From positions 151,327-215,326 of the forward strand of contig NW_001799024.1 in assembly GCF_000165425.1 (NCBI RefSeq): a stretch of 64,000 nt of DNA. The letters run 5' to 3'. Shown here piece by piece: positions 23,971 to 64,000 of this stretch (within the stretch, counting starts at the first letter, position 1; each line of letters begins with the position of its first letter). The position numbers were made by a program, and so were the translations under genes. The notes beneath the pieces were generated by a model that worked only from the letters and a program-made list of their open reading frames with translations, was not told where the DNA came from and made no database searches. This stretch comes from Paramecium tetraurelia. Taxonomy: Eukaryota; Ciliophora; Oligohymenophorea; Peniculida; Parameciidae.

Positions 23971-25211
23971 ATGATTATGGATGATAAAATCTAAAGAATT
24001 TTACAAATGAATGACTTCTAACGTTCCTCCGACATTCGTAAAATCTCTCAATCCCAAGTGACAGAAAACACGAATAAGACTTATTCTATCACAGTTACTA
24101 ATCAATCCAAACCCAAAAGGAGGAAGGTTGTCAAATTAAAGAATCATTTACTCTAGTCACATGTAAGTCCAGATATTTAAAAACTATATTATTAAACCAA
24201 AAAGAATGAAGACTCCACTCAACATAATCAAACCGAATAAACAAAATCCATCAATTTACCCTCAATCTCTGATCAATCAAATAAAGGCAATCTGAATGAA
24301 TTTATCGCTCTTGTTCTGGAAGTGTTCCCTCCTGATCATCAACTATGGATGGATCTATAAATTAAGGATTAACAATTAGAAGAAGTTATTGCTCAAAATT
24401 AAAATTATTTCTCTGATCTACTAAGTAATTATACTCACTTATTTCTAGTGCTCTATATCCAAGAGATGGAAATTCGCTAACTCAAGGATAAAAAACTAGG
24501 ATACAAAGGAAAATACACTACCTAATACAGTGAAGATTTCAGTGATAAAATAAATAAAGACAACACATCAATTAATCGATGGATTTATGATCGAATCAAA
24601 TAATCAAACACATTTCTATAAAACATTAGTACTTACAATGTAAAAACTATAGAATTATATACAGCAACATTACATTCCAAAACGTTACGATAAGATTGGC
24701 AATTTCAAACCGGACCATAAACCTAACTTAAATGAAATATCTTGTCTCTCCTCTTATGCTGTCAATTATAGAGACTGGAAGAAATAATATCATGGTCTCA
24801 TTGGTCCCATTAATTCCTCTAGCGAGAAGAAACTACCATTTGTAGCTGAAACCAATTACACTCGAAATTTCGTCACACAAAAATATGAAAAACAAGATCC
24901 TATCATCCCTAAATAATTGTACCATATATCTCAATATCAATAGAGGTCCATTCCCAAATCAACCAAAAACTCTGATTCGAGATACTACACACAAATCCTA
25001 GTTTTGTTTACCCTAATAAGATAATTCATCCACTTAGAATTTGGTTTATAGTCAAAGAACCAATCATATCAAAAGTTTTGATGGGTATTAACCACACTAC
25101 AATAAATAATCTACAATTTCCAATCAGGGTGAGGACTTTGCTGATCGTTTCTATCACTCTTCGATTGTTTAAAAATTAATGAAAAAAAGTTAGAAATAAT
25201 AAAATAATTGA
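23971..25211 (+). CDS. SAXO-like microtubule-associated protein
   Basis: Three in-frame starts (23971, 23977, 24007); the last leaves more room from the divergent neighbour. The basic N-terminus leads to a long region with repeated aromatic motifs (SSYAVNYRDWKKQYHGL, ETNYTRNFVTQKYEKQD, SFDGYQPHYNK). These resemble the Mn repeats of SAXO/FAM154 proteins, which bind and stabilise axonemal microtubules. One 25-nt intron near 24645 is needed to keep the frame. The frame after RYYTQ (about 25000) is uncertain: the protein may end at 25081, or at 25211 if one base is missing. This is the only complete copy; 5'-truncated copies lie at 41272 and 56866. The family call is by motif and is moderate. Confidence 0.6.
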
Positions 25212-25239
25212 TATAATTCAAAGTATATGTTATGATATG

Positions 25240-25933
25240 TCACTATTATTAAAGCAATTTATAGTGGAGAAGATCTTTTTATATTTACATTAGTTAATTT
25301 AATGAATTTTCATTTCTAGAATAGTAACTGTTTAAACGATCCAATTCTTATTCAAAATTAGTCATTTTTGGTCTAATCTTATAAGGATAGTATAATGCAA
25401 CTCGTTCCCACTCCTCCTCTTCAAGACGAGCACAATTTGATTGATTAAATTTAAATGTGGAGATATTCATTAGTATTTTGTGTTCTATTTCAGGATTAAT
25501 CTTTTTTAGTTCTTATTAGATTTATTTAAGGTCCATTTGCATCTATTTTGAGGATGGTAAACTATTGTTTCTTTCACTTTATTGTTTAAAATATTAAATA
25601 CATCGATTTTGTTTATTGAACTGCACTTAATTGTTATTTTCTTCTTGTCTGATTAAGTTCCCCCAACATTCGTTTCGCTTTTTCACTCTTCAAAGAATCC
25701 AATTTATACAATTTTACAAGTGTTTTCTCATAGTTTACTTAATTCTTCTCCAAATACGCTCGAATTTTATTGTCCACTTTATCAAACAATTAATTATCAT
25801 ATGTAAGATCCTTGATTTTGTGACTGATGCTTCTCTTTTCCCTATTACTCAATCTATTCCCTTTTTAAGGAGATATTGTATTCTCAACAACATCAATTGT
25901 ATTGGATGAGTTAATCGGAGTCACACTCTTCAT
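25240..25933 (-). CDS. Small coiled-coil protein, 222 aa
   Basis: ATG at 25933, one 25-nt intron after TKS (GTATTTAATA...), TGA at 25240; exactly 223 codons. Lys-, Glu- and Gln-rich helical protein (RAYLEKNQVNYEKTLVKLYK, LEEEEWERVALYYPYKIRP). No targeting signal or known domain is recognised. It is convergent with the SAXO gene, with about 29 bp between the stops. Damaged copies sit at the same place in units 2 and 3. Function unknown. Confidence 0.7.
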
Positions 25934-27732
25934 TATAAAAAATTAATATATTTTTTGTATTTAAGAAATAAACAATATTTAAACTGAAACCATACAAGAG
26001 AATTTATTATTAAATTGATATGTATTTATTTTCAATTTAGATTTACAAGATTTGTTAAGAAAAACAAAAGGGTGTCTTAATCAACATGTATAATTTAAAA
26101 TAAAAATTATCATATATTTTTATATTGTTTTATTTTATAATTATTCGTCAATTCTCTATTCAACTTAATCGAAACAATATGCATAATAAATAGTATAAAT
26201 AGTAGATATCATATAATGAATATGGCGTTAATCAGAATGAGAGGAGTTTGAATAATTAATAATAATTGATTAAGTGATAAGAATTAAATTATGCTGTTCT
26301 CTACTTAAAGGTAAAAGTCCTAAATATTGATTTCAGGAACTTAAATGATGTATAAAACTAATATTTTGAAAATTTTCTACATTAATTATAAGTTTTTTCA
26401 AGGATTAATATCTTTAATTTTAGACATTCCTACCTTAAAAAACTCGATTTAGAACTGTTTTATGATGTTTGTTTTTGGTTAAATTAGAAAAAGAAATATC
26501 TGAAGTTGGATTATAAAACATTTTTCAAAAACCCCATTAAGAATAAATTTGTATATAATTAATTTAAAATAACATTAATAAAATTGAATTTAAAATATAT
26601 ACATAATAGATTTGATACTTTAAATAAATATTTAAAATATTATACAATTATAATATTGCAATTAGTATTATTAGGGATTAGCTCTCTACAATAGTTGTTG
26701 TTATCAACATCCTAATATTCCAACATGCACATTTTGATATTTAAATTTTTAACAAGTAACTTAAATTAAGTATTCATTAATTAAGTATCAATTTAGCTTT
26801 AATTAAGATCATTGATTAGAGATTATTTAAAAAGCAATAAGATGGAATCTTTATATTAAACAATAAAATTTAAGTTAATCAGAAAAAGTATGGTTTTTAT
26901 TATTAGATAAGATTTATTGCAAAAATTATTAGAAGTTTTGATGTAAAAAATTCCCTATATTTCCATATATATGAGGTCTTTTACAAATGTTGTTTGTGAT
27001 GAATGCCTCATATAAATTATTTTGTATATAGTACCTAATATATATGGAAACTCTTGAATTATGATGGGAAATTAATTAAAAGTCATAAAAATATATGGAG
27101 AACATAATAATTCTTAAAGTTTAGAAATGATAACAGAAATCAATTAAAAGTTCAATTTTAATAATTATTATAATAAATATATATATCAAACAATTAATAA
27201 TTAATAATTAATAATTATAAATTAATTATTAATAACTAATTGAATTGTCCATCCTCAATTTAAACAACCAGATAATCGGTGTTTTAACGATGACAAAGTA
27301 ACATGGATACACCAGATTTAGACGACATCAGTTTTATTTAAGATCAAATGATGAAAGATGATATATTAATTATTATAATATATATTTATACTAACTTTAA
27401 GAATTAAAGATTTTCTTATAAATTGTTGTTCCAAATTTATCTTAATTATGCGCTAGCGAATAAATGACTATCATGACTTTAATTAGCTAATAAGTCAACT
27501 AGTTTCCGCTCACAAGCATTTCTAATACTGGAATTTTAAAGGAAATTAAGCGACTCCTTGAAATTAGTGGTTTAATGAACTACGAAATACTACATTCAAA
27601 CCAACATAGTATGATCGAGAAAATAATAAATATATTCTGATAAATTTAGACTAAACAACAATCTTAATGAAATATTAGGATTTAAATAGATAAGGAATTT
27701 TGAATTCTTAAAATCATATTTATAAATAAGAA
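25934..27732. promoter_or_regulatory. Conserved 1.8-kb spacer upstream of giant gene 1
   Basis: No reading frame is supported. The spacer is extremely AT-rich and unusually long for this compact genome. Recognisable matches occur in the matching spacers of units 2 and 3, for example GTTATCAACATCCTAATATT near 26700, 43327 and 58346, and TTCTTAAAGTTTAGAAAT near the 3' end. It lies between two divergent starts and so must contain the promoters of both the coiled-coil gene and the giant gene. A regulatory role beyond that is inference. Confidence 0.4.
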
Positions 27733-30700
27733 ATGATTCTTTCTTTGAATTTTGTATCGATCATCTTGGGAGTATTTGGGTGGAGAGACTACTATAATTA
27801 GTACTCTAATATTTATGGATTTTAAATTGAAAAATGCCCAGATTTGCATGTACAAAAGGCTAGTCTGCATCCATACTAATGTGTCTGTAATTCTAAAAGA
27901 GTAAATTTAGCTTATGCTGTGATTTGTAAGGGTGTGGAGGAGATACAAGTAAAAATTGAATTGAATGGAACTCAACATTAATGTCATCCCAGATTCCAAC
28001 CATGGGGAGCTGGGACTCCAACAATGGATAATACTACAGTTCATTGTGGATTTGATGGAGGTGATCAGTTAGTGATGGAGATGTTAGCAGATGGAAAGTA
28101 TAAATATTATTGTACATGTATGTATCGGTTAGTATTAGATTAGCATTGACAGATGAAAAAAATAAAAGATGTTTGATAACTGCCTATTAATATAGCATTT
28201 ATAGTTGCCAATTTTGCAAGCCTCCTTACTTTGGACTAGATTGTAAAAATGTTCTCCGGTATTTTGATTAACGTTATACAAATCCACTCCGATGTAGAAA
28301 TTATATTTATTTAAGCATGCTCCTAAAATTGTCTGGAATGTGATGAAGGAAGTTAAAGTTGTACTAAGTGTATTCCTGGAACAGATAACATAAATTCTAA
28401 CGATAAAGCATGCTAACTAGGTATATCATAGTTTAAACCTTTATAGATTGTCTAGGATTTACAAGTTGCTCTATAGTTTCTAATACATTTCAAAATAGTA
28501 GTATTTGCTTGCCCAGCACTGTTCTCAGAATTGACCGTTGTGTTTGTATATTTTAAATAATAGTTTTATAGCATGCCCAACTGGATGTTTAGCTTGCACT
28601 TTAGATTTTCAGGACCTGTTTAAATAGAAGTGTGATTCTTGTGATTCTAATTATATTCGACAATTAGTGAGCAGTAATGCTCCTAATATGTACTCTTGCT
28701 ATCGATTATTTAATTGTCCTAGTGTAAGATAATAATTGATAGGTCAAACAATATCATCTAGTGGAGAGTATGCTTATAATATACGATGTACATTATGTGA
28801 TCCAGGATTTGTTTATGATCTTACTACCTAAATATGCCAATGTAAATTTTAATTAAAATATAACTTTAGGGAGTCAATTTAAGAAACCAGGCTGTTTCTT
28901 TTTGGATCCTTAAGGAAATAACTGTGTATCCTGTTATCCATGGTTTAGTTTACAATCCGATGGCTCATGCAAACTAATAAGTTGCAATCCGAACTGTTAT
29001 ACATGTTTGGATACAAATCCAGATATTTGTACTACTTGTGATGGCTTTAATAATAAAGTGCTTTCTAATGGTATTTGCATATGTGATTCAAACTATGGTC
29101 TTAAAATTGATGAGTGTGTAAAGTGTACTGAGGGTTATTGTTAAGAGTGTGAAATAGGTAATTTTTTCTCATGTACCTCATGTGCGCCTGAAACAAATAG
29201 AATATTAGTTGATCAATAATGTATTTGCAAACCTGGGTCTTGTGAACCTGCAGATGGAAGTGTGACATGTATTTGTAAACATTCTGAAATATAAATTAAG
29301 TATGCGATAAGTCATGTGTAAATTGTTCAGGTCCAACAAGTAATGATTGTACTTTATGTCCTGACGAAATAACTACAAATAGAATTCAGATTGGTAATTC
29401 TTGTCCTTGTAAACCAGGTTATGCTGATTATGAAGTCAAAGATGCAATATGTGGAAGTATTTGTAGTTATATATTAAGAATGCCATCCAAGATGCAAACA
29501 ATGTTTCTAAGCAGCTGATGAAACTTCAAATTAATATTGTCTAACTTGCATTCCTGGACAAAATAGGGTTGTTTCTGATAATCTGAATTGTGATTGCAAA
29601 GAAAACTATGGTGATTTTGATGGCACTTTAGATATTTGTCTAAGTACTTTATAATTTATATTTAGTCTGTGATTATACCTGTGGAGTATGTAATGATTTT
29701 GGTCCTATGAATTGTACCTCTTGTTTAGAAAGCTCACATAGATATTTAACAGCATTAGGAGAATGTTTATGTAAAACATCATATTTTGATGATCAAACAT
29801 AAAACACAGAGTGTTAAAGTAGAATAGATACTAATCCTAGAATGTCATTATTCATGTTTAAGATGTGCCAATAGCATTGAAGACAATTCATGTTTAGAAT
29901 GTCCTCCTACTAGAAATCCTAGTGATCCATTAGCCACTTAGTTTTAATGTATTTGTGAATCTTCAAACTTCTTTGACGATGGATTATTACCAACCTGTCT
30001 ATAATGTGATACCTCTTGTCTAACCTGTTATGGTCCTCTTTCATCTAACTGTCTATCTTGTGATTCAACATATAGAGAATTTGATTTATCCTCTTGTCTA
30101 TGTCCACCAGGATATTATGATGTTGGATAATTGGAATGTGCTAGTAATTCTATATTAAATATTATCAGAATGTCACTATTCTTGTTATTAATGCTTTGAT
30201 AATACAGCTGAAGGTTGTATAAATTGTTCAATTGATTTTCATCTTAGAGTATTAAGAGGAAATACTTGTAAATGTATTGATGGATATTATGATGAACCAG
30301 GAACATCTAAATGCAAAAGTAATTACTAAAATTATTTTTATAATAGAATGCTCATATAAATGTGAAACCTGTGAAGAGTAAGCTGAAAAATGTTTGAGTT
30401 GTCCTTTAAATTCATTACGTACTTTTGATTCCACTACAGGTTGTCTTTGTCCAGAAGAGTATTATGATTAACAAAATGTCATAATTTGTTAAAGTAACAT
30501 AAAAATAAATTAAAGAATGTCATTTCAAATGCAAAAATTGTAGTGCCTAAACGGAAAGTTCATGTCTTTCATGCGATCCATTGTCATATAGAGAAATTAA
30601 ACTTTAATAATGTAAATGCTAACCACATTATTTTGAAATGGAAGTTTAGGAATGTGCAAGTAATTATTATGCTCAATTATAGTTTGTAGTGCTCTTTGTT

Positions 30701-33700
30701 ATGAATGCGTTGATAGACTTGATAATTGTACTTCATGCTATGATGATAGATATCTAATTGGAAATAAATGTTAATGTGCTTCTAAGTTTTAAGGGGCTTC
30801 GATAAGTACATTTGAATTTAATGGTTTGGTTAAATGCTAAAGTATATCTTCATATAACTGTAAGAGTGCCATTATTCTTGTGCAACATGTGGAGGAAAAG
30901 AAGAAATGGATTGTATATTATGCATAGACACGGATCATAGGTATTAAGTAGGCAATACTTGTGTTTGCAAAGAAGGATATTATGATGCAGGATTGCCTGT
31001 CTGTTAAAGTATTTATCATTTGTTTATCAATAGAATGCAGTTACAAATGTAAAGGATGCTCAAGATAGTCTGAATATTGTACTTCTTGTTAAGATAACAG
31101 TTTAAGATAGTTAGTTTCAGATTTCAAAACATGCAAATGCAATTAAAGATATTATGATGATGGTTAAAGTGAAGTTTGTTAATGTATGTATTTTCAATAT
31201 GATTAATTAGAATGCCATTACTCATGCCTTAGATGTAATGACATCGACACAAAATGTGAATTATGCTCATTTGAATCAAATAGAATTTACAATGATTAAC
31301 TATTTTCTTGTGATTGTGATGTAGGTTATTATAATACTGGAGTTGAAATCTGTTAAAAATGTCACTATTCCTGTTTAAGTTGTAATTCTGGAGATTCATC
31401 ATCATGTATTTAATGTGTTGATTCTAACATTTCAAATAGAGTATTTTATAATAACACTTGTAAATGTTTATTTGGATATTTTGATGATGGCTAATCAATT
31501 AAATGTTAAAAATGTGATGTTTAATGTTTAAGTTGTATTAATTAATCTTATTAATGTTTATCATGTCCACAAACAAGGAAATTAGAAACTAATTGTAAAT
31601 GTTAATAAGGATATTATGATATTGGATTACAACTATGTTAAAAATGTAACTCAATTTGTTCTGCATGTGAATTTACATCTAATAATTGCACATAATGTGA
31701 TTCTGATTAATTTAGACAACTTAATGAAATTACTAAAACTTGTGATTGTTAAATTGGTTATCTTGAACTTAATGGAATTTGTTAATAATGTGATCAAAGT
31801 TGTAAAATATGTTAGTAATAATTGAATCATTGTACATCTTGTGTATAATTTAGAAAATTAAATAATAATAATTGCATTTGTATTGATGGTATGTTTGAAT
31901 CAATTTAAGATAAATAATGTAAATTATGTCATAAAACATGTTTAACATGTGCTTATTCAGATTAATATTGTTTAACTTGTTCAGTTGATAATTTTAGAAT
32001 ATTTAAATCTGGAAATACTTGTGAATGTATATAAGGATACTATGAAAATTAAATAACTTATGCATGTGAATAATGTTCAAAATCTTGTTTAACTTGTTCA
32101 TAATAATATAATAATTGTTTAACATGTGATACAACTCTTAATTTATCTTTAATCAATAATCAATGTTTATGTTCGTAATCCTATTATTTTGACACTTTAA
32201 CTAATTCATGTTAATGTAATAATATTATATAAATATAGAATGTAATATCACCTGTTTAGATTGTTAAAATCAGAATGAATGTGCATCATGTAAATTAACA
32301 ACCAGACATTTAGATTAAGATTAAAAGAAATGCATATGTAATGATGGTTATTATGAAACAAACTAAGCAAATTGTTAATGTATTATAAATTATCTACTTT
32401 TAGAATGTCATTTATCATGTGAGACTTGTATTAATATCGATACTAATTGCTTAAGTTGTATAAGTATATCGAATAGAATATTAACTAATAATTAATGTTT
32501 GTGTATATAAGGATATTATGATGCAGGAATTGAAATATGTTAAAAATGTAATGGTAAATGTAAGACGTGTTAATCCTCTGCTTCAACTTGTTTATCTTGT
32601 TATCAAATTGAACAAAATAGATATTAATCAACAGATAAATGTTTATGTAAATCTGGATATTTTGAATCTAATACTGATATCTGTTAAAGTAATCTTAATT
32701 AATTAATAATTTAAAATGCTCAAACGAATGTCTAACATGTTAAGGTTCGCCTGATTATTGTACAAGTTGTGATACCAATTCAAAAAGAATAGATTAATCA
32801 TTTATTCACAAATGTCCATGTATAATTGGATTTTATCAAGATCAAAATTATATTTGTTAAAGTAAATATCCATATATTATTTAAAGAATGCCATTATAAA
32901 TGTTAAACTTGTATAAATATAAGTGATTAATGTTTTAAGTTGTAAATTTGAATTAAATTCAAACAGAAAGTCTTTGTCTGATTAATGTAATTGTAAAGAA
33001 GGTTATTATGATGATGGAACTTAATTATAATGCTAAAAATGCAATTTTAAATGTAAAAGTTGTATAAATGATTCAAATAACTGCTAAATTTGTTCAAATT
33101 CAATACGAAGTAATCCTCCAATGTGTAATTGTATTGATGGATATTATGAAGATTTATAATTGACTTGCTAAAGTATCTATTATCTTATAATAAGTGTGTG
33201 CTTATTAATGTAAGAAATGTGTTACTTAACCATAAAATTGTTTGACTTGTAAACCAGAAAGATCTGGAACTGATTGTAAATGTAGTGATGGATATTATGA
33301 AAATGGATCCATATTTTGCGATTGTAATAATTCTTAACAATTTGATATAGAATGTGCATTTCAATGTGCTACTTGTAGTAATTCATCATCGAATTGCAAC
33401 AAATGTAAAGGTAATAGAATTTAAGAGCCTTAATGCATTTGTCAACCAGGCTATTTTGATGATCAATTAAACGAAGATTGTTAATTATGTGATAGTTCCT
33501 GTTTGGAATGTAATAAAATTGGATGTCTATCCTGTAATGCCAATAGAATAATAAATGATGATATGGATTGCGTGCCTCCACCGAATTCAATTTGGTATAA
33601 TAATACTCCTTGGTGTTCAAGTAAGTGAATTTCAATATTTTTAGCTTGTTAAGTTGCAGTTATTAAAGTATATTTATCAGATGATATCAGTAAAATAATT

Positions 33701-36700
33701 ATTCATTTTGATTTCCTTTTAAATTCAAAAGCATTTAATTCATAATTTGAATTAAATAAATGTTTGTAATTATTTGAATTAGAATCTGTCTAAAGTCTTG
33801 GGTTAAATTGTTAATGCTTTCTTGATCCAGATGATAATCATCAATTATTAATATCTTTAGGAGAAAACTCAAAAATAAATGTAGGTGATGAATTAATATT
33901 TCTAAGTAATTCTTTATCTCATGTTAATTGTGAAACTACATTAAACAAAGTTTATTTTTCCAACATTATAATTGCCATTAAACCCATTGGCTCCATAAAT
34001 TGAGTATATTGTACCTTTACATAAATTAAATCCTTATACAGAAAACTCAATTTATTTGAAATCAATAAAAAACCATGGATTAAGAAAATTAATTAATATA
34101 AACTGGACTTTTTAGGCAGAAACAAGCCAAATTACAGAAGCCTTGAATGATTTCATTACATAAATCAATTTTCTTTAGGAATTAAATTTACTTATACCCA
34201 AACTTACATTACCTAGTGATGAAATTCTCAAATTTAAGATCTAATATGAAAATTTCATTAATATTCATTCATAATCAGAATTTACAATATAAACTCATTC
34301 AGGATGCCTTCCATATATTGAAATAACTGCAAAACCTTAATATTTCGTATATGAGACGATTACTATAAGTTTATCTGCTAACACTTTATATTAATCAAAT
34401 TAAAGTGATAGTTCTAAATATTTAATTGAAATTAGTGAAATTGATAGATATCCTAAAAAGTCATCGTCTTCACAATTAAATAAATCCATGTAATCTAATC
34501 CTTTTGAAAAAATTTAAGCAAGCATTCTAAAATATACATTAAGTCCTAATACAACTTATACGTTCTAAGTTAATGCAACAAATTTAAATACAAATAAGGC
34601 TCAATAATAAAATTTGAGTATTTAAATCCCATATGCTGGATTAATATGCAAATTTAATAACAAAGAAATCTAGAGTATTAGAAAGGATCTCAATTTATAG
34701 ATATAATGTAGAGATTTAGACACAATATATGATTGGAATACTGATCCAGATTTGTATGTCCAAGTAGCCTGTAAGGATTTAACTTTAAATAGCACTTGCA
34801 TAAATTAATTAAAATAATTAATTAATGTCAATGTTACAGATACATTTTAGTTTATTAAGAAGAATTCAATTTCTTCCTTAACTGTGTAGGAATGGTCAGT
34901 CATAGTAACCAAATTTGACTAAATTTACAAATTTACATAAATTATCGTTTTTCTTGAGGATGATTTCCCTGTTTTAGATTTAGATTTCAATTAGGGTTAT
35001 TTAATGAGATAGGTTAATAATTATGAATAGCTGAATTTTACATTTCTAATCCCATTCAATGAAAAATCTTAGTTATTAGATCTATCAATTGCACTTATAT
35101 ATAACTATCAGATAATAGCAATACTGTAACCTAAATATTTTTCTCATTAATTTAAGTTATTTAATAGTCTAGAAGAGTTAAAATTGGGGAATAACATTAA
35201 TCTTAAATTTACAGCATAATATACAAACAATATCATGCCTAGTCTAAATACCATAAAACTGACTATTAATTAACCTCCTATCTGTTCAAAATTAACTATT
35301 ACTCGTTCTAATGATTAAGCACTTTCAAATATGATGGTTACAACTACTTGTTAATACTCAGATGATTCTCCTTATAAGTACGAACTTAGAGTATTTTTGA
35401 GAGAATAAGATTTAACAGATTTTTTGAAAGGTTCATCTGATAATTCCTTAATTCTTTATCCTTATTAGTCTTAAATTCAATTTTAGATTTAAATTCCTAC
35501 TTCAGTAGATTCTTCAACAATTGGACTTCTATTATAAGTGCTTGATTAAGGAGGATCAATAACTCCTATTTATGAGTAAATTACTTCAACCCCTGCAAAA
35601 ATTAATTGTTCCTAAATATAATTTACAAATTTGAAATTGCAAAGCAAGATTTCCTTGTTATTTGAAGCGATGAATTAAAAATGTAATGAGTTACATAATT
35701 AAATTTATCTTGATTTACTTTACTAATAAATTTTGCCAGATTAGAACGATAACATCCTAAAATTTTAAGCTATAAAATTATATAGGTAGTTTTTAATATA
35801 GTTTGGATAGACTAAACCTAAGAATCGATTATTATTTGAATCAAATTAAAAAGGATGCTATGATAAAAATTCAGGTCGTTTCTTTATTACATAAAATGAG
35901 GATGAATCTAATTCAAATTCAACAACAAAGATAGAAGAGTTACAAGATAATGTTAAGAAATTAGATTCATCATTTAAATATTTTAGAGGAATGAAAAAGC
36001 AAAGTGAAGAGGGGCTCAATCAAAATAATTACGTTTGGAATCAAGAACTTTTCTAATAACTATAAAACTTCTAAGGAGGTTTAATTAATCTATTACTTTG
36101 TTGATGAATTGTATTCTAACTTTTTATCAGCCAATACGACAAATGCAACAATTTACTCAAGCATTGTGGAATTGTTAAAGTATAAAAGCTCTATAACAGA
36201 TGAAATATAGAATAATATTGTTGTTAATGACTAACCATTATATATTGAGGGTAAAGATATGATTTTTTAATTAAAAAAAAGAACAAAAAAGATGTTCAAT
36301 TAATAATTTAATATTGAACCAGCAATTGAAGACTACATAATAGATTTTATTCAATATGAATCTACACATCTTTCAATAAATCCATTAATATTCAGTCCAG
36401 ACTAAGATAAAATGCTTTAATAACATTTTAACGACAAAACTATGCAAATATTGTCAGATAATTATTACTTAATAAAATTATTCAATGTTATTAAAAACAG
36501 ATATATAACTTATGAAAATATTTCATCTTACTTTGGCACTAAATTTGGAACATATGAGATCTGTTCTAATTAATCATAAAAAATTAAAGAATATGAGATA
36601 TTGTGTATTTCAAGAACAGTCTCTGGAGGATTCCATAAATGTAATTTAAATAAAGTAGAAAACAATGAAACTATTGAATTAACTTGTGAATGCAAGAGTT

Positions 36701-37232
36701 TGGGGGAAATATTATTAATTTCTTCTACAAATTTTAGTTTTGTAGATGTAATTAATAAAAGCACAGAAGAAGCTGGTTTTGATATAACATCATTCTAAGA
36801 TGATTTCTTTATTTTAATCATTTGTACAAGTTTTTTGACTATAATACTTTTTGGAATTTATATTTTTTAATTAATCAGGGACTTTAGACATAATTCAGAT
36901 GATATAAATTTATCACAAGCTTGTAGCGTGAAGGTAGATGTAAATAAAATGATGTACAAAGGAAGTTTTACACTTTTCAAAAAAAAATTCAAAGTATACC
37001 TTAATTTAATTATTAGGATATCCATCAAGTCATCTCGCTTGCTTATTATAGAGACTGTTAAATTAAATTCAGTTATAGAATTTTAGAAGTCACATCCTAA
37101 AATAACTTATTGTTAACATTTAACATTGTAGAGCTTTATTTCTAAAGTCTTAACTTACCCCTGATATTTGCTTTTATGATTGCTAACCCTGTTATTGTTT
37201 TTATTCTGAGAATTATTTATAAAATTATTGAG
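27733..37232 (+). CDS. Giant cysteine-rich receptor-like protein 1 (REJ/GPS, polycystin-1-like), 3' end in gap
   Basis: ATG at 27733 gives a signal peptide (MILSLNFVSIILGVFG). A conserved N-terminal domain follows (GTQHQCHPRFQPWGAGTP), then about 1,700 residues of furin-like modules with the pattern C-x2-S/K-C-x2-C ... C-x2-C ... C-x-C-x2-GYYD. I can place about twenty introns of 20-28 nt, mostly phase 1 and at module borders. After 33640 comes a ~950-residue region with REJ-like features (LSPNTTYTFQVNATN, LLQVLDQGGSITPIYEQ), then a GPS-like motif at about 36550-36730 (ILCISRTVSGGFHKC ... ELTCECKSLG). A membrane helix (FFILIICTSFLTIILFGIYI) and part of a second segment precede the N gap at 37233. 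Extra bases near 32930 and 33950 shift the frame relative to unit 2. Order and motifs recall polycystin-1/REJ receptors; no PLAT domain is seen. Confidence 0.72.
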
Positions 37233-42060: not shown

Positions 42061-42124
42061 AAAGCTTAAATGGGTCTTAAATTTTGATACAATATTAGCC
42101 AATTATGGTCTAATTATTAGGGTA

Positions 42125-53200: not shown

Positions 53201-54140
53201 AATAAAGTAGAAAACAATGAAACTATTGAATTAACTTGTGAATGCAAGAGTTTGGGGGAAATATTTTTAATTTCTTCTACAAATTTTAGTTTTGTAGATG
53301 TATTTAATAATAGCACAGAAGAAGCTGGTTTTGATATCACTTCATTCTAAGATGATTTCTTTATTTTAATTATTTGTACAAGCTCCTTGACTATGATACT
53401 ATTCGGAATTTATATTTTTTAATTAATCAGGGACTTGAGAGATAATTCAGATGATGAAATATTATAAGAAGTTTGTAGTGTGTAGGTAGATATAAATAAA
53501 ATGATGTACAAAGGAAGTTCTACACTTTTCAAATAAAAATTCAAAGTATATTTTAAATTTAATTATTAGGATATTCATCAAGTCATCTCACTTGCTAATT
53601 ATAAAGATTAATAAATTAAATTCAGTTATAGAATTTTGGAAGTCATATCCTAAATTAATTTATTGTTAACTTTTAATATTGTAGAGTTTTACTTCTAAAG
53701 TCTTAACATACCCCTGATATTTGCTTTTATGATCGTTAACCCTATTATTGTTTTTATTCTGAGAATAATCTATAAAATTATTGAAACAATATACAGATTC
53801 AGAAATATTCCTGCAATTATTAGTTCGTTCATTCTAATCATATTATTGATATTGCCGAATATTGTCCTCTTTATTATTCACAAAACCAGGTAATTATCCA
53901 TTATATTTTAGATTGGAGGCTTAATCAGAAATATATATAATGGTTATTATCTTCTTAGTGAATATTGTAATTTAATAAACTGTGATTGAAGCGATTTCAA
54001 TATTCGGAAGAATTTCAATTTATAGATTAATAGCCTCGAGCCTCAAATAAATGGAACTTAACCCATTATTTCATTTGATGCATTTTTTTGTTATGCACAG
54101 CAGTCTAGAAGATATTTTCGACGAGTTCCTAAAAATTTGA
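44275..54140 (+). CDS. Giant cysteine-rich receptor-like protein 2, full length with frame breaks
   Basis: The only copy whose 3' end is visible. Signal peptide MIVAFYFVSIIMKVFGWR, then the same N-terminal domain, furin-like modules, REJ-like region and GPS-like motif (~53100-53280) as copy 1. The C-terminal part after 53700 has hydrophobic segments (FAFMIVNPIIVFILRIIY; SSFILIILLILPNIVLFII; IMVIIFLVNIVIQQTV) and ends SSLEDIFDEFLKI at TGA 54138-54140. It is therefore a multi-pass protein. Single-base differences from the other copies shift the frame near 45970, 47382, 48288, 48708 and 51926. These are mostly in A or T runs and could be assembly errors or true decay. N-terminally it is closer to copy 3 than to copy 1. 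Confidence 0.68.
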
Positions 54141-54636
54141 AATGATATTTTGAATTAAATAAAGATTAAAATTTTATAATTATTTTTAAAATTTCATAAT
54201 GTATTCTAAATAAATAGTATTAAATTATCTAATTTATAAAATTCAATAATTGTTTACATAAGACATAAATATATGTCTAGAGTTAAAACCTATTTAATTA
54301 AGTTTCATTGTAACTCTGATTTATTATATTATTTATTCTCAATTGCATTCAAATTTTAACTCTATAATCCAAGATTTTAGTCATTTTGATAAAAGTCATC
54401 ACAAGAACAATATAATTGATAGAAACGATAGTAAATTTATAATAATTACAAAGAATTAAAGAATCACTTAGTATTGAAAGCAAAATTATTATTAACTAAA
54501 CAAAGAGAATTTGAAATATATTCATCCTTTCAGTAAATGGAAGGATTAAGATAATTGAATAGTATATATATGTTAAATGAAGTTGCTGGTTTTACATATC
54601 TAGTTGAAATAAATAATTGATAATGTATTTGATATA
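54141..54636. other. Spacer after giant gene 2
   Basis: About 500 bp of AT-rich DNA between two convergent stops. No gene or motif is seen. Confidence 0.5.
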
Positions 54637-55644
54637 TCAGGTTTTTCCGAAAATAATCATTAAAATTTCGAGTATTCTCAAAAACAAGATAACAATATCA
54701 ACGTATAATAACATGGCTGCAATAATATAATCATCAATTGTTAAATAATTAGACTAAGTTTGAATTATAATATTACATGATTGCCAATAATAAGTTAAGT
54801 ATCAAAGATGATATAGCCTCCATATATGATGATGCATAGGGTACATATGAATAAATGGAACCAAATATTGCGAACGAATAAGCCAATAATGCACATAATC
54901 AAAACACTCATACTTAAAACAAAGCAGAAATGTCCTTGAATAATAAATGAAGTAATCAACCTGCAGCTGAATAATCTGTTTTTGTACGCCATGCATATAT
55001 TGTGAGCATAATAGTAATTGCCACTGTGATTGATGCAGCAATAATGACTAATTGAACTATATAATATTTGAATTCAGAATTTACCTCCATTTGATAATAA
55101 TTCAAAGCAAATGATGCAAGGTGCAGCCACAACAGTACTAAAGCATAGAGTAAAAATAGTAAGTAATATGTAATTGAGAGGCACCTATAAGATATTATAT
55201 ATTTCATACTTTTCTCGCCACTTTTCTGCAACAAAAGATAGCAACTTCAATGACTAAGGCAATTACAAAGCAAAATATAGTTAATGGTGTGTATTGAATT
55301 GTTGATGTATTGATGATGGCATTTCTCACATTTTGGAAATAATAAGATGCCAAAATTAACAGAAACGTGATTGAAAGTTAAAAACTCATAATGGCATAAA
55401 CTTTCACAATGAATCCAGCTCTAATATCGGAATCTGCAGAGCTTACTAAACCTGAACATTCAGAATCATTTACTGCCATAGGATTATTAAATGCAGCATG
55501 ATTAACATTTCCAATTTGATAGGCAAGTTGTTATGGCTATTTACTATTTTAATTAAAAGGATCTTATTAATTAGGAGTTTATTAATTGTATTGAAGTTAT
55601 TGATTTGGATCATCAGAGTAATACCTATTATTGTTGTTATTCAT
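54637..55644 (-). CDS. TMBIM/Lifeguard (Bax inhibitor-1 family) membrane protein, 301 aa
   Basis: ATG at 55644, four introns (25, 28, 26 and 23 nt), TGA at 54637; exactly 302 codons. A glutamine/asparagine-rich cytoplasmic N-terminus (MNNNNNRYYSDDPNQQLQY) leads to IRAGFIVKVYAIMSFQLSIT, the typical first helix of Lifeguard proteins. Six or seven hydrophobic helices follow. The family signature GGYIIFDTQLIIGNH and the C-terminal helix IDDYIIAAMLLYVDIVILFL are present. Members sit in ER or Golgi membranes and affect calcium leak and stress survival in other eukaryotes. It is found only in unit 2, where it takes the place of most of the type I membrane gene of unit 1. Confidence 0.85.
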
Positions 55645-55690
55645 GTAATTTATTAATATAATAATGATATAAATAACATAACATACGAAT

Positions 55691-55834
55691 TCAATTGATT
55701 TATTTCTATTGTAAATGATGAATTGCATCATTGATCATATTACTCATTTTTCTATTCTAAAGTGTTACTTTACCTAATTATCCAAGTTGTCTTTCCATTT
55801 TATCAACATTCTTATCCTTATCTTCATTACTCAT
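55691..55834 (-). CDS. Possible small protein, 47 aa
   Basis: ATG at 55834 to TGA at 55691, reading MSNEDKDKNVDKMERQLGQL and on as a charged helix. It lies just upstream of the TMBIM start on the same strand, so it may be a separate small gene, an upstream open frame, or an exon I cannot connect. Weak. Confidence 0.3.
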
Positions 55835-55864
55835 AGAATAATATTTAATTCATAATCTCATTTA

Positions 55865-56440
55865 ATACTTAATATCCTCATGAATTCCAGCATAAAGTTT
55901 AAGGGAATACTCAATTTACATATCCTTTTCAAAATTAAGAGATAGACAAGATTATTAATTCTATTTTCTTTCTATTAATTAATTTAATTTAGTTTATATC
56001 GGAGCAGCAATCCTGTAACTGTAAACTATTTTTATTGAATTGTAAGCCTGCATTCAAATTCTTTTTATTAATGATTCTATAAATGAAAATTTAAATTAGT
56101 TTAATAGACTGTGAAAATATTTATTAGGATTTTAGAATTCATACATTTCAAATATTTAACAAATTAAAATTATTCATTGACTTTTAAAGTACACCAAATA
56201 TTTAAGCATGGATTGAGAAATCATATGAAATTATAAATTTATAATAAAATATCCCTTGTTCTAAAATTACACTAAATTCATTCTAATTAATTATAACAAT
56301 TATTGACATTAGCTTTCAATAAGAGGATAAAAAAACTTTAATTAAGTTGTTTATTTTCTTATGAAAAGTGAGTAAATAGTAAATCAAATTTTGATGTCAT
56401 TAAAATTTTTGCTAACATTTCAAAAATTTATGGATGAGTT
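55865..56440 (+). pseudogene. 3' remnant of the type I membrane protein gene
   Basis: Related to 39945-40840 of unit 1 (for example GAATTCCAGCATAAAGTTTA, TTAAGAGATAGACAAG, AACTGTAAACTATTTTTATT). Deletions and frame breaks occur throughout, including loss of the membrane helix. No upstream part exists. It shows that unit 2 once carried the gene. Confidence 0.75.
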
Positions 56441-56865
56441 ATAAATATATAAGTGTATTATAAGATATTAAAAAAATAAATACAGATATTTATTATAAAA
56501 ACTAATCCTATGGGAATGGATGCTATATAAATAATGAAGAATTCATCATTAGTAAGTTCCAACAAAGTTTCTATTTGGCCAACATTCATTAATAGTTTTT
56601 TGCAACCAAATGCTACAATTATTATACTGATATTTGTTGCTTTAATTCAAGAGTTTGAATAAATCTAGGTCAGATTTGGCTACTATAATAGTTTAATTCC
56701 GTAATAGGGCTTTGTGTTTTTTTTTAAATATTTTCTTGTTGAAGCAAAAAATAAAAAATGAAAATTTAAATTGTTAGCCAGATTATATCAGTATTACCGA
56801 TGTATAATCAATTTGACTTTGCGTTTTCTAGTAAATCAACAAGTCTTTTTCGAATTAGTATATAA

Positions 56866-57310
56866 AATGTAAAACTTACAAACTAAATACAGCAAAATTA
56901 CATTCCAAAGCTTTGCGATAAGATTGGCAATTTTAAACCAGACCATAAACCTATCTTAAATCAAATATCTTGTCTTTACTCTAATGCTGTCAATTATAGA
57001 GACTGCAAGAAATAATATCACGGTCTCATTGGTCCCATTAATGTTTATATCGACAAGAAATTGCCACCTGTAGCTAAAACTAGTTACACTCAAAATTTTA
57101 TCACAAAAAAATATGAAAAACAAGATCCTATCATCCAAAAATAATTGTACTCCATATCTCACTATCTCTAGAGATCCATTCCAGAATCCTCAAAAACCTT
57201 GATTCGAGATACTACACAAAATTCTATTTTGGTTACCCGAAAAGATAATACATCCACTAAACATTTAGTTTATAGAAAAAGAAACAATCCCATCAACGCT
57301 TTAAATGGGT
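56866..57310 (+). pseudogene. SAXO fragment in unit 3
   Basis: Matches the intact gene from about 24635 onward (after the intron region), with a number of substitutions; the 5' two thirds are missing. The piece keeps an open frame through YYTKFYFGYPKRQYIHQ, which suggests the original C-terminal reading of the family, but there is no start. Confidence 0.65.
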
Positions 57311-57429
57311 CTTAAATTCTTATTCAAAATTAGTAATTTTTAGTCTATCTTATAAGTGTAGTATTCTAAATTTATTGAATTGTTAAATAAATCATCTATA
57401 TAAGGCAACTCTTTCCCAAACTTCATCCT

Positions 57430-57790
57430 CAAGAGCACAATTTGATTAATTAAATTTAAATGTGGAGATATTCATTAGTATTTTATGTTCTATTTCAGAA
57501 TTAATCTTATTAGTTCTTATCAGATTTATTTAAGGTCCATTTGCATCTATTTTGAGGATGGCAAACTATTGTTTTCACTTTTTTGTTTAAAATGTTACAT
57601 GCATCAATTTTGTTTATTGCACTGCATTAATTGTTATTTTCTTCTTGTCGAAATAAGTTCTCCCAATATTCGTTTCGCTTTTTCACTCTTCAAAGAATCC
57701 AATTATACAATTTACAAGTGTTTTCTCATAGTTTACTAAATTTAACTCCAAATAAACTCGAATTTTATTGTCCATTTTATCGATTCTCTA
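57430..57790 (-). pseudogene. Coiled-coil gene fragment in unit 3
   Basis: Matches the middle and C-terminal coding parts of 25240-25933. The first ~60 codons, including the start, are deleted (the match breaks off at TATCGATTCTCTATTC). No open frame of useful length remains. Confidence 0.6.
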
Positions 57791-59291
57791 TTCAACTTAA
57801 TCGAAACAATATGTATAATAAATTATATATATTAAATTATGGTAAGTCAATAATCAGAATGATGAGGAGTTAGTCGGATTAATAAATTAATAATAATTTT
57901 TTAAGTCATAAAAATTATATCTGATGCCCTTTGCTTAGAGGTGGGGTCCTTAGTATTGATTTCAGGAATTTAAATGAAGTATGAGAAGTAAGGTTTTTAA
58001 ATTTTATACATTAATTAGAAGGATGTTTCATTGGATTTAATAAGTTTAACTTTAACTTTAGACATTCCTACCTTAAAAAAACTAATTGTAGGTCTGTCTT
58101 ATGAAGTTTATTTTTGATTAAATTAGAAAAAAAAGTATTAAATGAAGGTGGATTCTCAATCATTTTTCGAAACCCAAATTAAGAAATATTTTGGTTTATA
58201 ATTAATTTTAAAATAGCACTAATAAAATTAAATTTTAAAAAAATATTTGAATAAATTTGGCACTTTAAATAATTATTAAAATATAACACAATTATTGTAT
58301 TGGAATTAGTATTTTTAATAATTAGCTGCCTATAGTAGTTGTTGTTATCAACATCCTAATAAACCCACAAGTAAAATTGTTAATTAAATTTTTAGCAGAT
58401 AATTTAATTTGAACAGTCATATATTATGTATCAATTTAGCTCTAATGAAGATCATTCACTTTGAGATAATAGATGAAGCAATAAAATGTAATCTTTATTT
58501 TCAAAAATAAAATTATAGCAAATCAGAGAAAGCACCTGTTTTATTAATATATAAGATTAAATGCAATAAACTAATGAGGTTTTTGAAGTAAAGAACATAC
58601 AGGTATTTTTCTCAATATGATGAAATGGCTCATAAAAAATTATTTTATATATCAACTCAAATATATAAAGAATTTCTAATTATAGATAGAGAAATTAACA
58701 ATTCTTAAAGTTAGAAATAATAAGCAGAAATCAATTAAAAGTTCAATTATAAAATAGCCCATAATAATAATTATTATAATATATATAAATAATTAATAAT
58801 AAATTGAATAGTCCATCCTCGATTTAGGCAATCTGATACTTTGTGACTTAATTTAGATAAAGTAATAAGGATACACTAATTGCAGACATCAGCAGTTTAT
58901 TAAAGATCAAATGATGATATATTAATTTTAGAATATATATTTAATACTACCTTTTAGTACTTCTGATTTTTTATATACTGTTGTAGATTTATCTTAATTT
59001 ATACATCTCTAGTGAATAAATGATAATCATTGTTTGAATTAGTTAATATGTTATCTAGTTTCCATTCACAAGCATCTCCTCCTTGAATTTCAAGGATATT
59101 AAGCGACTACTTTAAAATAGTGGATTAACGAACTACGAAATGCTTATTCAAACTAATAAACTAAGATCAAGTAAATAATTTAAATAATTATAATCTTAAA
59201 CTCAAGACTAAACACCGCTTTTAGTTTAATATTAAGATTTAATAGATAAGGAAAGTTTGTTGAATTTTTAAATCATATTAATAAAAAAGAA
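57791..59291. promoter_or_regulatory. Spacer upstream of giant gene 3
   Basis: Counterpart of the unit 1 and 2 spacers, about 1.5 kb, same landmarks, no gene. It should hold the promoter of giant gene 3. Confidence 0.4.
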
Positions 59292-62200
59292 ATGATTGTT
59301 GGTTTGTATTTTGTATCGATCATCGTGGGAGTCTTTGGGTGGAGAGAGTACTATCGGGAGTACCCTAATATTTATGGTTATTATACTTAAAAATGCCCAG
59401 AATTGCATGCATAAAAGGTTGGTATGCATCCACACTAATGCGTCTGTAATTTAAAGGGAGTAATTTTAGCTTATGCTTTGATTTGTAAGGGTGTGACAGA
59501 GATAATTATAAAAACGGAATTGAATGGGACTCAACATTTATGCCATCCCAAATTCCAACCATGGGGAGCTGGAACTCCAACAAGGGACAATACCACACTT
59601 CATTGTGGGTTCGATGGAGGTGATCAGTTAGTGATGGAAATGCTAGCAGATGGAAATTATCAATATTATTGCAAATGTAAATATCGGTTAGTATTAGATT
59701 AGCATTGACAGATGATAAAAATATACGATGCTTGATAACTGCTTCCCAATATGGCATTTATAGTTGCCAATTTTGCAAGCCTCCTTACTATGGACTAGAT
59801 TGTAAAAAAGTTCTCTGGTATTTTGATTACCGTTTTACAAATCCACCCCGATGTATAAATCAAATTTATTTAAGAATGCTTAGGAAATTGTTAGGAGTGT
59901 GAAGATAGTGTAAGTTGTTACAAATGTCTTCCTGGCAAAGCTAACGCAAATAACGATAAAATGTGCTCATTAGGTAGATCATAGTTTAAACTATTATTAT
60001 AGATTGTGCAGGATTTACAAATTGCTTTATAGCTTCTAATACATATTAATTTAGTAATGTTTGCACTCCGGGAACTGTACTTAGATAGGACCGTTGCGTT
60101 TGTATATTTTAAATAATAGTTTATAGAATGTCCTGATGGTTGTTTAACTTGTACTTAAGATTAATAGAACATGAATAAAAGGTCTTGTGATGTCTGTGAC
60201 TCTAATTATTTTAGATTATTATATAGTAGAAATGAACCTGACATGTACTATTGCTATCGAGCAAATAATTGTGATACTTCAAGATAATCATTGATTAGTC
60301 AAACAGTATTAAATACTGGAGAATATGTTTATAATATACGATGTTATTTATGCGATCCAGGACTTATTTATGTTGTTTCTAGTGAATAATGCCAAGGTAG
60401 AATTAATGAATATATTTCTTTAGCAATCTCTACAGTGAAATAAGGCTGTTTCTTTTTTGGTACTAATTAAGGAACTAATTGCGTAGCATGTTCACCATGG
60501 TATAGTTTACAATCGGATGGCACATGCAAACCAATGGCCTGCAATTAAGAATGCTTTACATGTTTAGATACAAATCCAGATTTTTGTACTACTTGTGATG
60601 GTTTTAATCATAAAATACCTGATAATAATGGTATTTGCATTTGTAAGCCAAATTATGGTCTTAAAGCTGATGAGTGTGTAAAGTGTTCTGAGGGTTATTG
60701 TTAAGAATGTGAAGTAGGAAATTTTTTTTTATGTACCTCATGTGCACCTGAGAAATATAGAATCTTAATTGATCAATAATGCGTTTGCCAACCTGGGTTT
60801 TGTTAACCTGCAGATGGAAGTGCGACGTGTATTTGTAAGCATTCTGAATAATAATTAAGTATGCGATAAGTCATGTGTAAATTGTTCTGGTCCAACAATT
60901 AATGATTGTACTTTATGTCCTGACGAAATGACTACAAATAGAATTCAGATTGGTAATTCGTGTCCTTGTAAAAAAGGTTACGCTGAATATGAAGTCAAAG
61001 ATGCTAAATGTGGAAGTATTTGTAGTTATATATTAAGAATGCCATCCAAGATGCAAATCATGTCTCTAAGCAGCTGACGAAACCTCAAATTAATATTGTC
61101 TAACTTGCATACCTGGATAAAATCGAATTCTTTCAGAGAATCTCAATTGTGATTGCAAAGACAACTATTCCGATTTTGATGGCACTTTAGATATATGCAT
61201 AAGTATTTTTATAATTATATTTAGTCTGTGATTATACCTGTGGAGTATGTAATGATTTTGGTCCTACACATTGTACCTCATGTTTAGAAAGCTCACATAG
61301 ATATTTAACAGGTTTAGGAGAATGTTTATGTAAAACATCATACTTTGATGATCAAATATAAAACACAGAGTGTTAAAGTATAATAGATATTAATCCTAGA
61401 ATGCCATTATTCATGTTTAAGATGCGCAAATAGCATAGAATAAAATACATGTGTAGAATGTCCTCCAACTAGAATGCCTAGTGATCCATTAGCCACTTAG
61501 TTCTAATGTATTTGTGAATTTTCAAACTTCTTTGACGATGGATTATTACCAACCTGTCTATAATGTGATGCCTCTTGTCTAACCTGCAATGGTCCTCTTT
61601 CATCTAACTGTCTATCTTGTGATTCAACATATAGAGAATTTTATTTATCATCTTGTCTATGTCCACCAGGATAATTTGATGTTGGATAATTGGAATGTGC
61701 AAGTAATTCTATTTTAAACATTATCAGAATGTCACTATTCTTGTTTTTAATGCTTTGATAATACAGCTGAAGGTTGCATAAATTGTTCAATTGATTTTCA
61801 TCTTAGAGTGTTAAAAGGAAATACTTGTAAATGTATTGATGGATATTATGATGAACCAGGATCATCTAAATGCAAAAGTAATTATTAACATTATTTTTAT
61901 AATAGAATGCTCATATAAATGTGAAACCTGTGAAGAGTAAGCTGAAAAATGTTTGAGTTGTCCTTTAAATTAATTACGTACTTTTGATTCCACTACAGGT
62001 TGTCTTTGTCCAGGAGAGTATTATGATTAACAAAATGTCATAATTTGTTAAAGTAATATAAAAATAAATTAAAGAATGTCATTTCAAATGCAAAAATTGT
62101 AGTGCCTAAACTGAAAGCTCATGCCTCTCATGCGATCCATTGTCATATAGAGAAATTAAACTTTAATAATGTAAATGCTAACCACATTATTTTGAAATGG

Positions 62201-64000
62201 AAGTTTAGGAATGTGCAAGTAATTATTATGCTCAATTATAGTTTTGTAGTGCTCTTTGTTATGAATGCGTTGATAGACTTGATAATTGTACTTCATGCTA
62301 TGATGATAGATATCTAATTGGAAATAAATGTTAATGTGCTTCTAAGTTTTAAGGGGCTTCGATAAGTACATTTGAGTTTAATGGTATGGTTAAATGCTAA
62401 AGTAAATCTTCATATAACTGTAAGAGTGCCATTATTCTTGTGCAACATGTGGAGGAAAAGAAGAAATAGATTGCATTTCTTGTATTGACACTGATAATAG
62501 GTATTAAGTAGGCAATACTTGTGTTTGCAAAGAAGGATATTATGATGCAGGATTGCCTGTCTGTTAAAGTATTTATCATTTTTTTATCAATAGAATGCAG
62601 TTACAAATGTAAAGGATGCTCAAAATAATCTGAATATTGTACTTCTTGTTAAGATAATAGTTTAAGGTAGTTAGTTTCAGATTTTAAAACATGCAAATGC
62701 AATTAAAGATATTATGATGATGGATAAAATGAAGTTTGTTAATGTATATATTTCTATGTTTATAATTAGAATGCCATTACTCATGCCTTAGATGTAATGA
62801 CATCGACACAAAATGTGAATTATGCTCATTTGAATCAAATAGAATTTACAATGATTAACTATTTTCTTGTGATTGTGATGTTGGTTACTATAATACTGGA
62901 GTTGAAATCTGTTAAAAATGTCACTATTCCTGTTTAAATTGTAATTCTGGATATTCAAGTTCATGTATTTAATGTGTTGATTCTAACATTTCAAATAGAG
63001 TATTTTATAATAACACTTGTAAATGTTTATTTGGATATTTTGATGATGGCTAATCAATTAAATGTTAAAAATGTGATGTTTAATGTTTAAGTTGTATTAA
63101 TCAATCTTATTAATGTTTATCATGTCCACAAACAAGGAAATTAGAAACTAATTGTAAATGTTAACAAGGATATTATGATATTGGATTACAACTATGTTAA
63201 AAATGTAATTCAATTTGTTCTGCATGTGAATTTACATCTAATAATTGCACATAATGTGATTCTGATTAATTTAGAGAACTTAATGAAATTACTAAAACTT
63301 GTGATTGTTAAATTGGTTATCTTGAACTTAATGGAATTTGTTAATAATGTGATCAAAGTTGTAAAATATGTTAGTAATAATTGAATCATTGTACATCTTG
63401 TGTATAATTTAGAAAATTAAATAATAATAATTGCATTTGTATTGATGGTATGTTTGAATCAATTTAAGATAAATAATGTAAGTTATGTCATAAAACATGT
63501 TTAACATGTGCTTATTCAGATTAATATTGTTTAACTTGTTCCGTTGATAATTTTAGAATATTTAAATCTGGAAATACTTGTGAATGTATATAAGGATACT
63601 ATGAAAATTAAATAACTTATGCATGTGAATAATGTTCAAAATCTTGTTTAACTTGTTCATAATAATATAATAATTGTTTAACATGTGATACAACTCTTAA
63701 TTTATCTTTAATCAATAATCAATGTTTATGTTCATAATCCTATTATTTTAATTCTTTAACTAATTCATGTTAATGTAATACTATTATATTTATATAGAAT
63801 GTAATATCACTTGTTTAGATTGTTAAATTCAGAATGAATGTACATCATGTAAATTAACAACCAGACATTTAGATTAAGATTAAAAGAAATGCATATGTAA
63901 TGATGGTTATTATGAAACAAACTAAGCAAATTGTTAATGTATTATACATTATCTACTTTTAGAATGTCATTTATCATGTGAGACTTGTATTAATATCGAT
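59292..64000 (+). CDS. Giant cysteine-rich receptor-like protein 3, 5' part
   Basis: Signal peptide MIVGLYFVSIIVGVFGWR, the N-terminal domain (GTQHLCHPKFQPWGAGTP; CQFCKPPYYGLDC) and furin-like modules with introns at the same places as in copies 1 and 2. It runs off the window inside the module region. N-terminally it is closest to copy 2 (LKGVILAYALICK in both, against SKRVNLAYAVICK in copy 1). One extra T after the intron near 62245 shifts the frame relative to the other copies. REJ, GPS and membrane parts would lie beyond the edge. Confidence 0.7.

What the first reader, a model, noticed from the sequence alone, without database searches (positions are those of the whole stretch)
24224..64000. 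Three tandem ~16-17 kb units, each built around a giant receptor-like gene
The same order (SAXO piece, coiled-coil gene, spacer, giant gene, type I membrane gene or its remnant) repeats three times. The repeat starts inside the SAXO gene, so the array grew from one breakpoint and left broken flanking genes in copies 2 and 3. It points to selection or unequal exchange amplifying a large surface-type gene.
Basis: seen in the sequence. Interest (0 to 1): 0.75.

Follow-up and report, generated by a model that had tools for sequence, protein, structure and literature searches.

The report
Homogenised array of giant Paramecium receptors
A single-celled Paramecium carries three tandem copies, and nearby an inverted fourth, of a huge surface-receptor-like gene whose middle has been kept nearly identical between copies while the outer tips have drifted apart, probably through repeated copying of DNA from one gene to another.

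Summary
The repeat is real: three direct copies start at 24,225, 41,269 and 56,854. The genome is most likely Paramecium tetraurelia (inferred), read with the ciliate code. The window ends at its contig's last base. Contig C207 begins inside the same third unit (0 substitutions, 5 gap bases in 2,367 columns; other window copies 94-95.5%), so unit 3 is completed there; C207 also carries a fourth, inverted unit about 16 kb further on. Each unit encodes a giant (~3,000 aa) protein: diverged N-terminal head, ~25 cysteine-rich repeats, long ectodomain, several C-terminal hydrophobic helices.

The copies are not recent clones. Spacers of units 1-3 are 72-78% identical and head dS is 0.20-0.59, yet a ~5.5-kb core is 93.4-99.6% identical in all six pairs (where sequence exists), with dS 0.016-0.093 and introns 95-98% identical. 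Informative sites in the core fall into blocks (19 runs, 47 expected). Gene conversion fits; selection alone does not; some read mis-assignment cannot be excluded. The unit does begin inside a gene kept only as pieces in units 2-4, but its 'SAXO' name is unconfirmed. Function is unproven; a contact or ligand receptor is most likely.

The parts
   Evidence: gene model, start codon, homology to C70 residues 1-361 in three pieces; no Pfam match
25246..25951 (-). coiled-coil-like gene next to it, about 230 aa by its C70 relative
   Evidence: tblastn with the C70 protein, 88% and 69% over two pieces; no Pfam match for the C70 relative
24225..41266 (+). unit 1
   Evidence: self-BLAST, unit-start comparison
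27733..37232 (+). giant gene of unit 1, cut by the N gap
   Evidence: gene model, 31 predicted exons; one-base indels at 32,933 and 33,947 relative to the other units
31045..36536 (+). homogenised core of the giant gene in unit 1 (unit 2 about 47,594-53,088; unit 3 from about 62,605)
   Evidence: identity profile, dS and introns, site blocks
37233..37382 (.). 150-N assembly gap
37384..40842 (+). type I membrane gene of unit 1, 1,152 codons open, 5' end lost in the gap
   Evidence: open frame and relative in unit 4 at 69-70%, own-genome search
41120..41264 (+). sequence X at the junction of units 1 and 2
   Evidence: 80% to 56,716-56,860, and matches beside both ends of unit 4
41269..56862 (+). 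unit 2
41283..42037 (+). 'SAXO' piece of unit 2, lacking about the first 101 codons
42128..42562 (-). coiled-coil gene remnant of unit 2
   Evidence: 40% to the C70 protein
44308..54140 (+). giant gene of unit 2 (start codon uncertain)
   Evidence: gene model; last coding match ends at 54,137 (C71:205463)
54379..55835 (.). segment shared with unit 3 only
   Evidence: 96% to C207:7943-9230; no long open frame
55917..56266 (+). type I gene remnant of unit 2, in three frames
   Evidence: tblastn
56716..56860 (+). sequence X at the junction of units 2 and 3
56854..64000 (+). unit 3, cut by the contig end; continues on C207 from base 2,367
56893..57225 (+). 'SAXO' piece of unit 3
   Evidence: 50% to the C70 protein over residues 224-326
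57314..57790 (-). coiled-coil gene remnant of unit 3
   Evidence: 42% to the C70 protein
59424..64000 (+). giant gene of unit 3, 5' part (a start at 59,292 is also predicted); ends near C207:7513
   Evidence: gene models

Best explanation
SHOWN: a Paramecium (most likely P. tetraurelia) macronuclear locus holds three head-to-tail units and one inverted unit of a giant receptor-like gene. SHOWN, with the mechanism inferred: units 2 and 4 share a junction joining sequence X to the interior of a flanking gene, best read as unequal exchange at one breakpoint beside unit 1, loss of parts of the carried-along genes, and an inverted copy. SHOWN: the core of the giant gene is nearly identical in the four copies, at silent sites and introns too, while its 5' part, the spacers and the membrane end have diverged. 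INFERRED: recurrent gene conversion between copies, the inverted one included, keeps the stalk and most of the ectodomain uniform while the N-terminal head diverges. INFERRED, weakly: the protein is a surface contact or ligand receptor, with a variable head on a long cysteine-rich stalk anchored by several membrane helices.
For: Direct repeats; contig overlap with no substitution; inverted unit and X. Identity by 500-column blocks: spacers of units 1-3 71.8-77.9%, core 93.4-99.6% in all six pairs where sequence exists. dS 0.201-0.593 in the first 1.1 kb against 0.016-0.093 in the core; introns 74.0-86.9% against 95.1-98.2%. Blocks of two-against-two sites: 79 sites, 19 runs, shuffles mean 47.0, minimum 34 of 5,000. 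Longest identical tract between two copies within 30-37 kb is 381 b. Three P. pentaurelia proteins repeat the contrast at protein level: heads 60-66%, cysteine core 90-92%.
Against: Contigs end and N gaps lie in or at the core, so mis-assigned reads could add to the mosaic. P. sonneborni copies show no comparable homogenisation (heads 31-52%, cysteine core 61-79%). All tetraurelia copies form one clade in all six region trees, so the array is lineage-specific and no old outside date for the duplications is at hand. One-base indels occur in the core of every copy. No expression or localisation data; no known receptor domain beyond a sub-threshold fibronectin III match.
Confidence: 0.7

Rival explanations
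1. Recent tandem duplication with the core held alike by purifying selection and a fast-evolving head, without gene conversion.
For: The head has the higher dN/dS (0.49-0.64 in the first 1.1 kb against mostly 0.2-0.5 in the core), so the core is more constrained in part.
Against: Silent sites and introns follow the same step as coding sites; selection on the protein does not hold introns at 95-98%. Site patterns in the core change partner along the gene.
Confidence: 0.08
2. The homogenised core is largely an assembly effect: reads or consensus from one copy were placed in others.
For: Contigs C71 and C207 both end inside the core, N gaps lie in or at it, and one-base indels cluster there.
Against: Copies still differ by up to 6.6% per 500-column block in the core and share no identical tract above 381 b there; P. 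pentaurelia proteins show the same contrast.
Confidence: 0.12
3. The copies are decaying: one or more of the four giant genes is a pseudogene and the locus is a graveyard rather than a working array.
For: One-base indels with downstream in-frame stops in units 1, 2 and 4 relative to unit 3's model, and two in unit 3 itself; broken flanking genes in units 2 and 3 and a broken type I gene in unit 2.
Against: In the first nine exons of the head all indels but one are multiples of three; dN/dS below 1 in each pairwise region; indel errors are demonstrable in the contig overlap.
Confidence: 0.2

Closest known systems
Tetrahymena thermophila mating-type proteins MTA and MTB, and partner MRC1 (PMC10901506, PMC3608545: passages seen)
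   Same: Cysteine-rich GFR/furin-type repeats with several C-terminal membrane helices (five there; mostly four, sometimes five, by hydropathy here) and an N-terminal extracellular part that varies between copies; in the Tetrahymena germline array the membrane exons are 99.4-99.6% and the specific parts 42-43% identical.
   Different: Here the homogenised part is the stalk and ectodomain, and the membrane end is less homogenised.
Paramecium surface antigen genes, including the transmembrane cysteine-repeat group (PMC9788069: passages seen)
   Same: Large cysteine-rich surface-type proteins of Paramecium with species-specific, mostly intrachromosomal duplicates; the paper mentions transmembrane cysteine-repeat proteins of unknown function.
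   Different: Classical antigens are GPI-anchored, about 2,200 aa; these are about 3,000 aa, with many introns and several C-terminal helices, and no surface-antigen Pfam match was returned. Whether they fall in that paper's transmembrane group was not tested.
'EGF-like domain-containing' giant proteins of P. pentaurelia, primaurelia, sonneborni, octaurelia and tetraurelia (P0006-P0020, P0025-P0028)
   Same: Direct homologues: P0007-P0019 are 52-67% identical over the aligned part, P0020 33%; P0006 is unit 3's own partial record (86% to the unit 2 query).
   Different: Unnamed in the public records, no function given; P0006 is partial at a contig edge and P0024 (1,033 aa) is another piece on a contig of the same length.
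Gene conversion between whole-genome duplicates in Paramecium (review PMC11334263: passages seen)
   Same: The same process in the same genus.
   Different: Here it would act between tandem and inverted copies at one locus, with bounded tracts inside one gene.

Membership tests
MTA/MTB/mtA-type ciliate mating-type proteins | cysteine-rich GFR or furin-type repeats in the extracellular part | tested here: inconclusive
MTA/MTB/mtA-type ciliate mating-type proteins | five C-terminal transmembrane helices | tested here: inconclusive
   hydropathy only: five in P0009 and P0022, four in most other models with a full end, six in P0020; fewer in P0008 and in models with short ends (P0016-P0018, P0023, P0024)
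MTA/MTB/mtA-type ciliate mating-type proteins | sequence homology to MTA, MTB or mtA | not testable with these tools
   no such sequence was at hand; no hit bore such a name; papers holding it were not held
MTA/MTB/mtA-type ciliate mating-type proteins | required for mating recognition | not tested
   needs experiment
Paramecium GPI-anchored surface antigens | GPI-anchored C-terminus without a multi-helix membrane domain | tested here: not met
   several C-terminal hydrophobic helices in family members with a full end
Paramecium GPI-anchored surface antigens | surface-antigen repeat domain (Pfam; name recalled) | tested here: not met
   not among Pfam matches at E up to 1 for P0007 and P0020 or for the unit 2 pieces
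Polycystin-1 or adhesion-receptor (GAIN/GPS) proteins | GPS, REJ or PLAT domain near the first membrane helix | tested here: not met
   no such Pfam match at E up to 1 or 5 (6 members)
SAXO microtubule-binding proteins (label of the gene at 23,977-25,211) | match to a SAXO family model | tested here: inconclusive
   no Pfam match for the window gene at E up to 1 or its C70 relative at E up to 0.1; motifs recognised by eye only

The most novel reading that the evidence does not exclude
The array is a recognition cassette with the logic of the Tetrahymena mating-type array: related receptors whose heads are held apart as different specificities while conversion, also with an inverted donor, keeps one common stalk, acting in cell-cell (mating or species) recognition in Paramecium.
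Probability: 0.08. Interest if true: 0.85.

Novelty: new variant of a known kind. Interest (0 to 1): 0.42.

Why it matters
It is a sharply bounded case of apparent gene conversion inside a giant gene, visible at silent sites and introns and reaching an inverted copy, in a genus for which a review states that almost nothing is known of the rate and patterning of crossing-over and conversion within chromosomes (PMC11334263, passage). If the heads are recognition domains, the copies are a natural set of variants for finding what these receptors bind. It also shows that contigs C71 and C207 overlap and that public models of these genes are incomplete.
Full report
WHAT WAS CHECKED. Self-BLAST of the window gives long direct repeats: 24,225-25,003 vs 41,269-42,036 (97.2%), 27,017-37,231 vs 43,582-53,784 (92.6%), and 57.8-64.0 kb against both earlier copies (86.3% and 88.3%). 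The reversed, non-complemented window gives no hit at that threshold. The three units are real.

WHERE IT IS. No frame of 150 codons is open under the standard code, but many are when TAA and TAG are read as Gln. A small gene finder trained on stretches of the same genome, window included, predicted 271 introns, mostly 22-28 nt, with length 27 rare (4) and 24 (28) less common than 23 (49) or 25 (47); a shortage of 3n introns is recalled for Paramecium. The best database hit, P0006, is named 'unnamed protein product, partial (macronuclear) [Paramecium tetraurelia]' on a contig of 362,286 bases, the length of contig C207 here. The species is inferred from this.

THE ARRAY IS LONGER THAN THE WINDOW. 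The window ends at the last base of contig C71 (215,326). C207 begins inside a giant gene; its first 2,366 bases match window 61,638-64,000 with 0 substitutions and 5 gap bases in 2,367 columns, while the copies in units 2 and 1 match at 94.2% and 95.5% over longer stretches. The contigs thus overlap in unit 3, whose giant gene ends near C207:7513 and whose similarity to unit 2 ends at C207:9230. A fourth unit, inverted, lies at about C207:41.26-24.92 kb, flanked by a 134-bp direct repeat, X, at 88.8%. X also stands directly before units 2 and 3.

HOW THE UNIT AROSE. In units 2 and 4 the junction of X with the gene labelled 'SAXO' falls at the same place; in unit 3 about 400 bp of the gene are missing. 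Contig C70 carries a related neighbourhood: 'SAXO' gene, WD40-repeat gene, coiled-coil gene, and a GTPase gene with an AARP2CN domain (E 4.1e-13), and no blastn match to the giant gene in the 18 kb read. In unit 1 the 'SAXO' gene (from 23,977) and the coiled-coil gene look whole by homology. Unit 2 keeps the 'SAXO' gene from about residue 102, 97% identical to unit 1; unit 3 keeps residues 224-326; their coiled-coil remnants are 40-42% identical to the C70 protein. The type I gene is open for 1,152 codons in unit 1, 69-70% identical and split between two frames in unit 4 (dN/dS 0.58 between them), reduced to 55,917-56,266 in three frames in unit 2, and not found in unit 3. This supports growth from one breakpoint with damaged passengers. 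Unequal exchange is the simplest mechanism; it is inferred.

NOT A SIMPLE RECENT AMPLIFICATION. The four units were aligned (unit 3 joined across the overlap) and read in 500-column blocks. Spacers of units 1-3 are 71.8-77.9% identical; that of unit 4 does not align. Between 27.6 and 29.1 kb (unit 1 coordinates) the gene is 70-91% identical. From about 31.0 to 36.5 kb all six pairs are 93.4-99.6% (unit 4 lacks part of it because of its own N gap). In the last 0.7 kb before the gap identity is 84-98%. The 'SAXO' pieces of units 1 and 2 (97-98%) are a second patch of high identity. Silent-site divergence follows: dS 0.201-0.593 in the first 1.1 kb, 0.016-0.093 in the core, 0.071-0.275 in the last 0.5 kb; introns are 74.0-86.9% against 95.1-98.2% identical. 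Selection on the protein does not do this to introns and silent sites. In the core, 79 two-against-two sites fall into 19 runs, against a mean of 47.0 and a minimum of 34 in 5,000 shuffles: units 1+2 against 3+4 predominate from 31 to 34.5 kb, 1+4 against 2+3 at 34.6-35.0 kb, 1+3 against 2+4 from 35.3 kb. This is what conversion tracts leave; mis-assigned reads could do the same.

CAUTION. Contigs end in the core, the N gaps lie in or at it, and one-base indels are seen in every copy there; in the first nine exons of the head all indels but one are multiples of three. As the contig overlap differs only by indels, at least some are sequence errors. I call no copy a pseudogene, nor all four intact.

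THE PROTEIN. About 3,000 aa: signal-like start, a head with conserved cysteines (35 invariant columns in 8 relatives), some 25 cysteine-rich repeats, a roughly 1,000-aa ectodomain with a weak fibronectin III match (E 0.0013, below the curated cut-off), then several hydrophobic helices: four in most relatives with a full end, five in P0009 and P0022, six in P0020. Pfam finds nothing else convincing. Against 14 relatives from other Paramecium species the head is 31-53% identical (13 comparable, some over short stretches) and the cysteine core 51-72%. The tetraurelia copies form one clade in all six region trees (unit 4 too short in the last), so the array is lineage-specific. Three P. pentaurelia proteins, two on contigs of equal length, repeat the head/core contrast (60-66% vs 90-92%); P. 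sonneborni copies do not show it so clearly (31-52% vs 61-79%). In this genome a juxtamembrane query had 23 matches, 8 in the four units and 15 elsewhere; of the latter, those on C186 and C225 are 44% identical and the other 13 are 26-37%.

LITERATURE. Six searches listed no paper that by title or abstract treats this array; only listings and passages were seen, and most subscription papers are missing. Tetrahymena MTA, MTB and MRC1 combine five TM helices with a GFR domain, and P. tetraurelia mtA is called MTA/B-like (PMC10901506, passages). The Tetrahymena germline array has membrane exons at 99.4-99.6% and specific parts at 42-43% identity (PMC3608545, passages). A survey of Paramecium surface antigens mentions transmembrane cysteine-repeat proteins of unknown function and species-specific duplicates (PMC9788069, passages). 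The resemblance to mating-type proteins is one of layout only.

VERDICT. Observation confirmed and extended; interpretation partly right. The most informative new fact is the bounded near-identical core shared by direct and inverted copies.

Noticed in passing
window 5966-7156 and 10109-11299: An inverted repeat with arms of about 1.19 kb, 98-100% complementary in its pieces, about 2.95 kb apart, plus a further inverted pair 5672-5901 / 6289-6518.
   Followed up: partly
G000:C71:133941-136148 (+) and 138448-136277 (-): Two more distant members of the giant family (26-27% identical in the juxtamembrane part) lie tail to tail, about 13-17 kb upstream of the window.
   Followed up: no
window 25211-25246; G000:C70, between about 26.6 and 29.1 kb: On the related locus C70 a WD40-repeat gene lies between the 'SAXO' and coiled-coil genes; in the window the two are about 35 bp apart, so it is missing there.
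   Followed up: partly
window 24301-24712 vs unit 2: The 'SAXO' piece of unit 2 shares a 411-base identical tract with unit 1, the longest between any two units, although the spacer next to it is only about 75% identical.
   Followed up: no
window 54379-55835: A 1.4-kb segment shared only by units 2 and 3, with no long open frame; origin unknown.
   Followed up: partly
G000:C6:281893-284888 and C218:233732-237133: Relatives of the type I membrane gene (24-33% identical) elsewhere in the genome, on other contigs than the giant genes.
   Followed up: no
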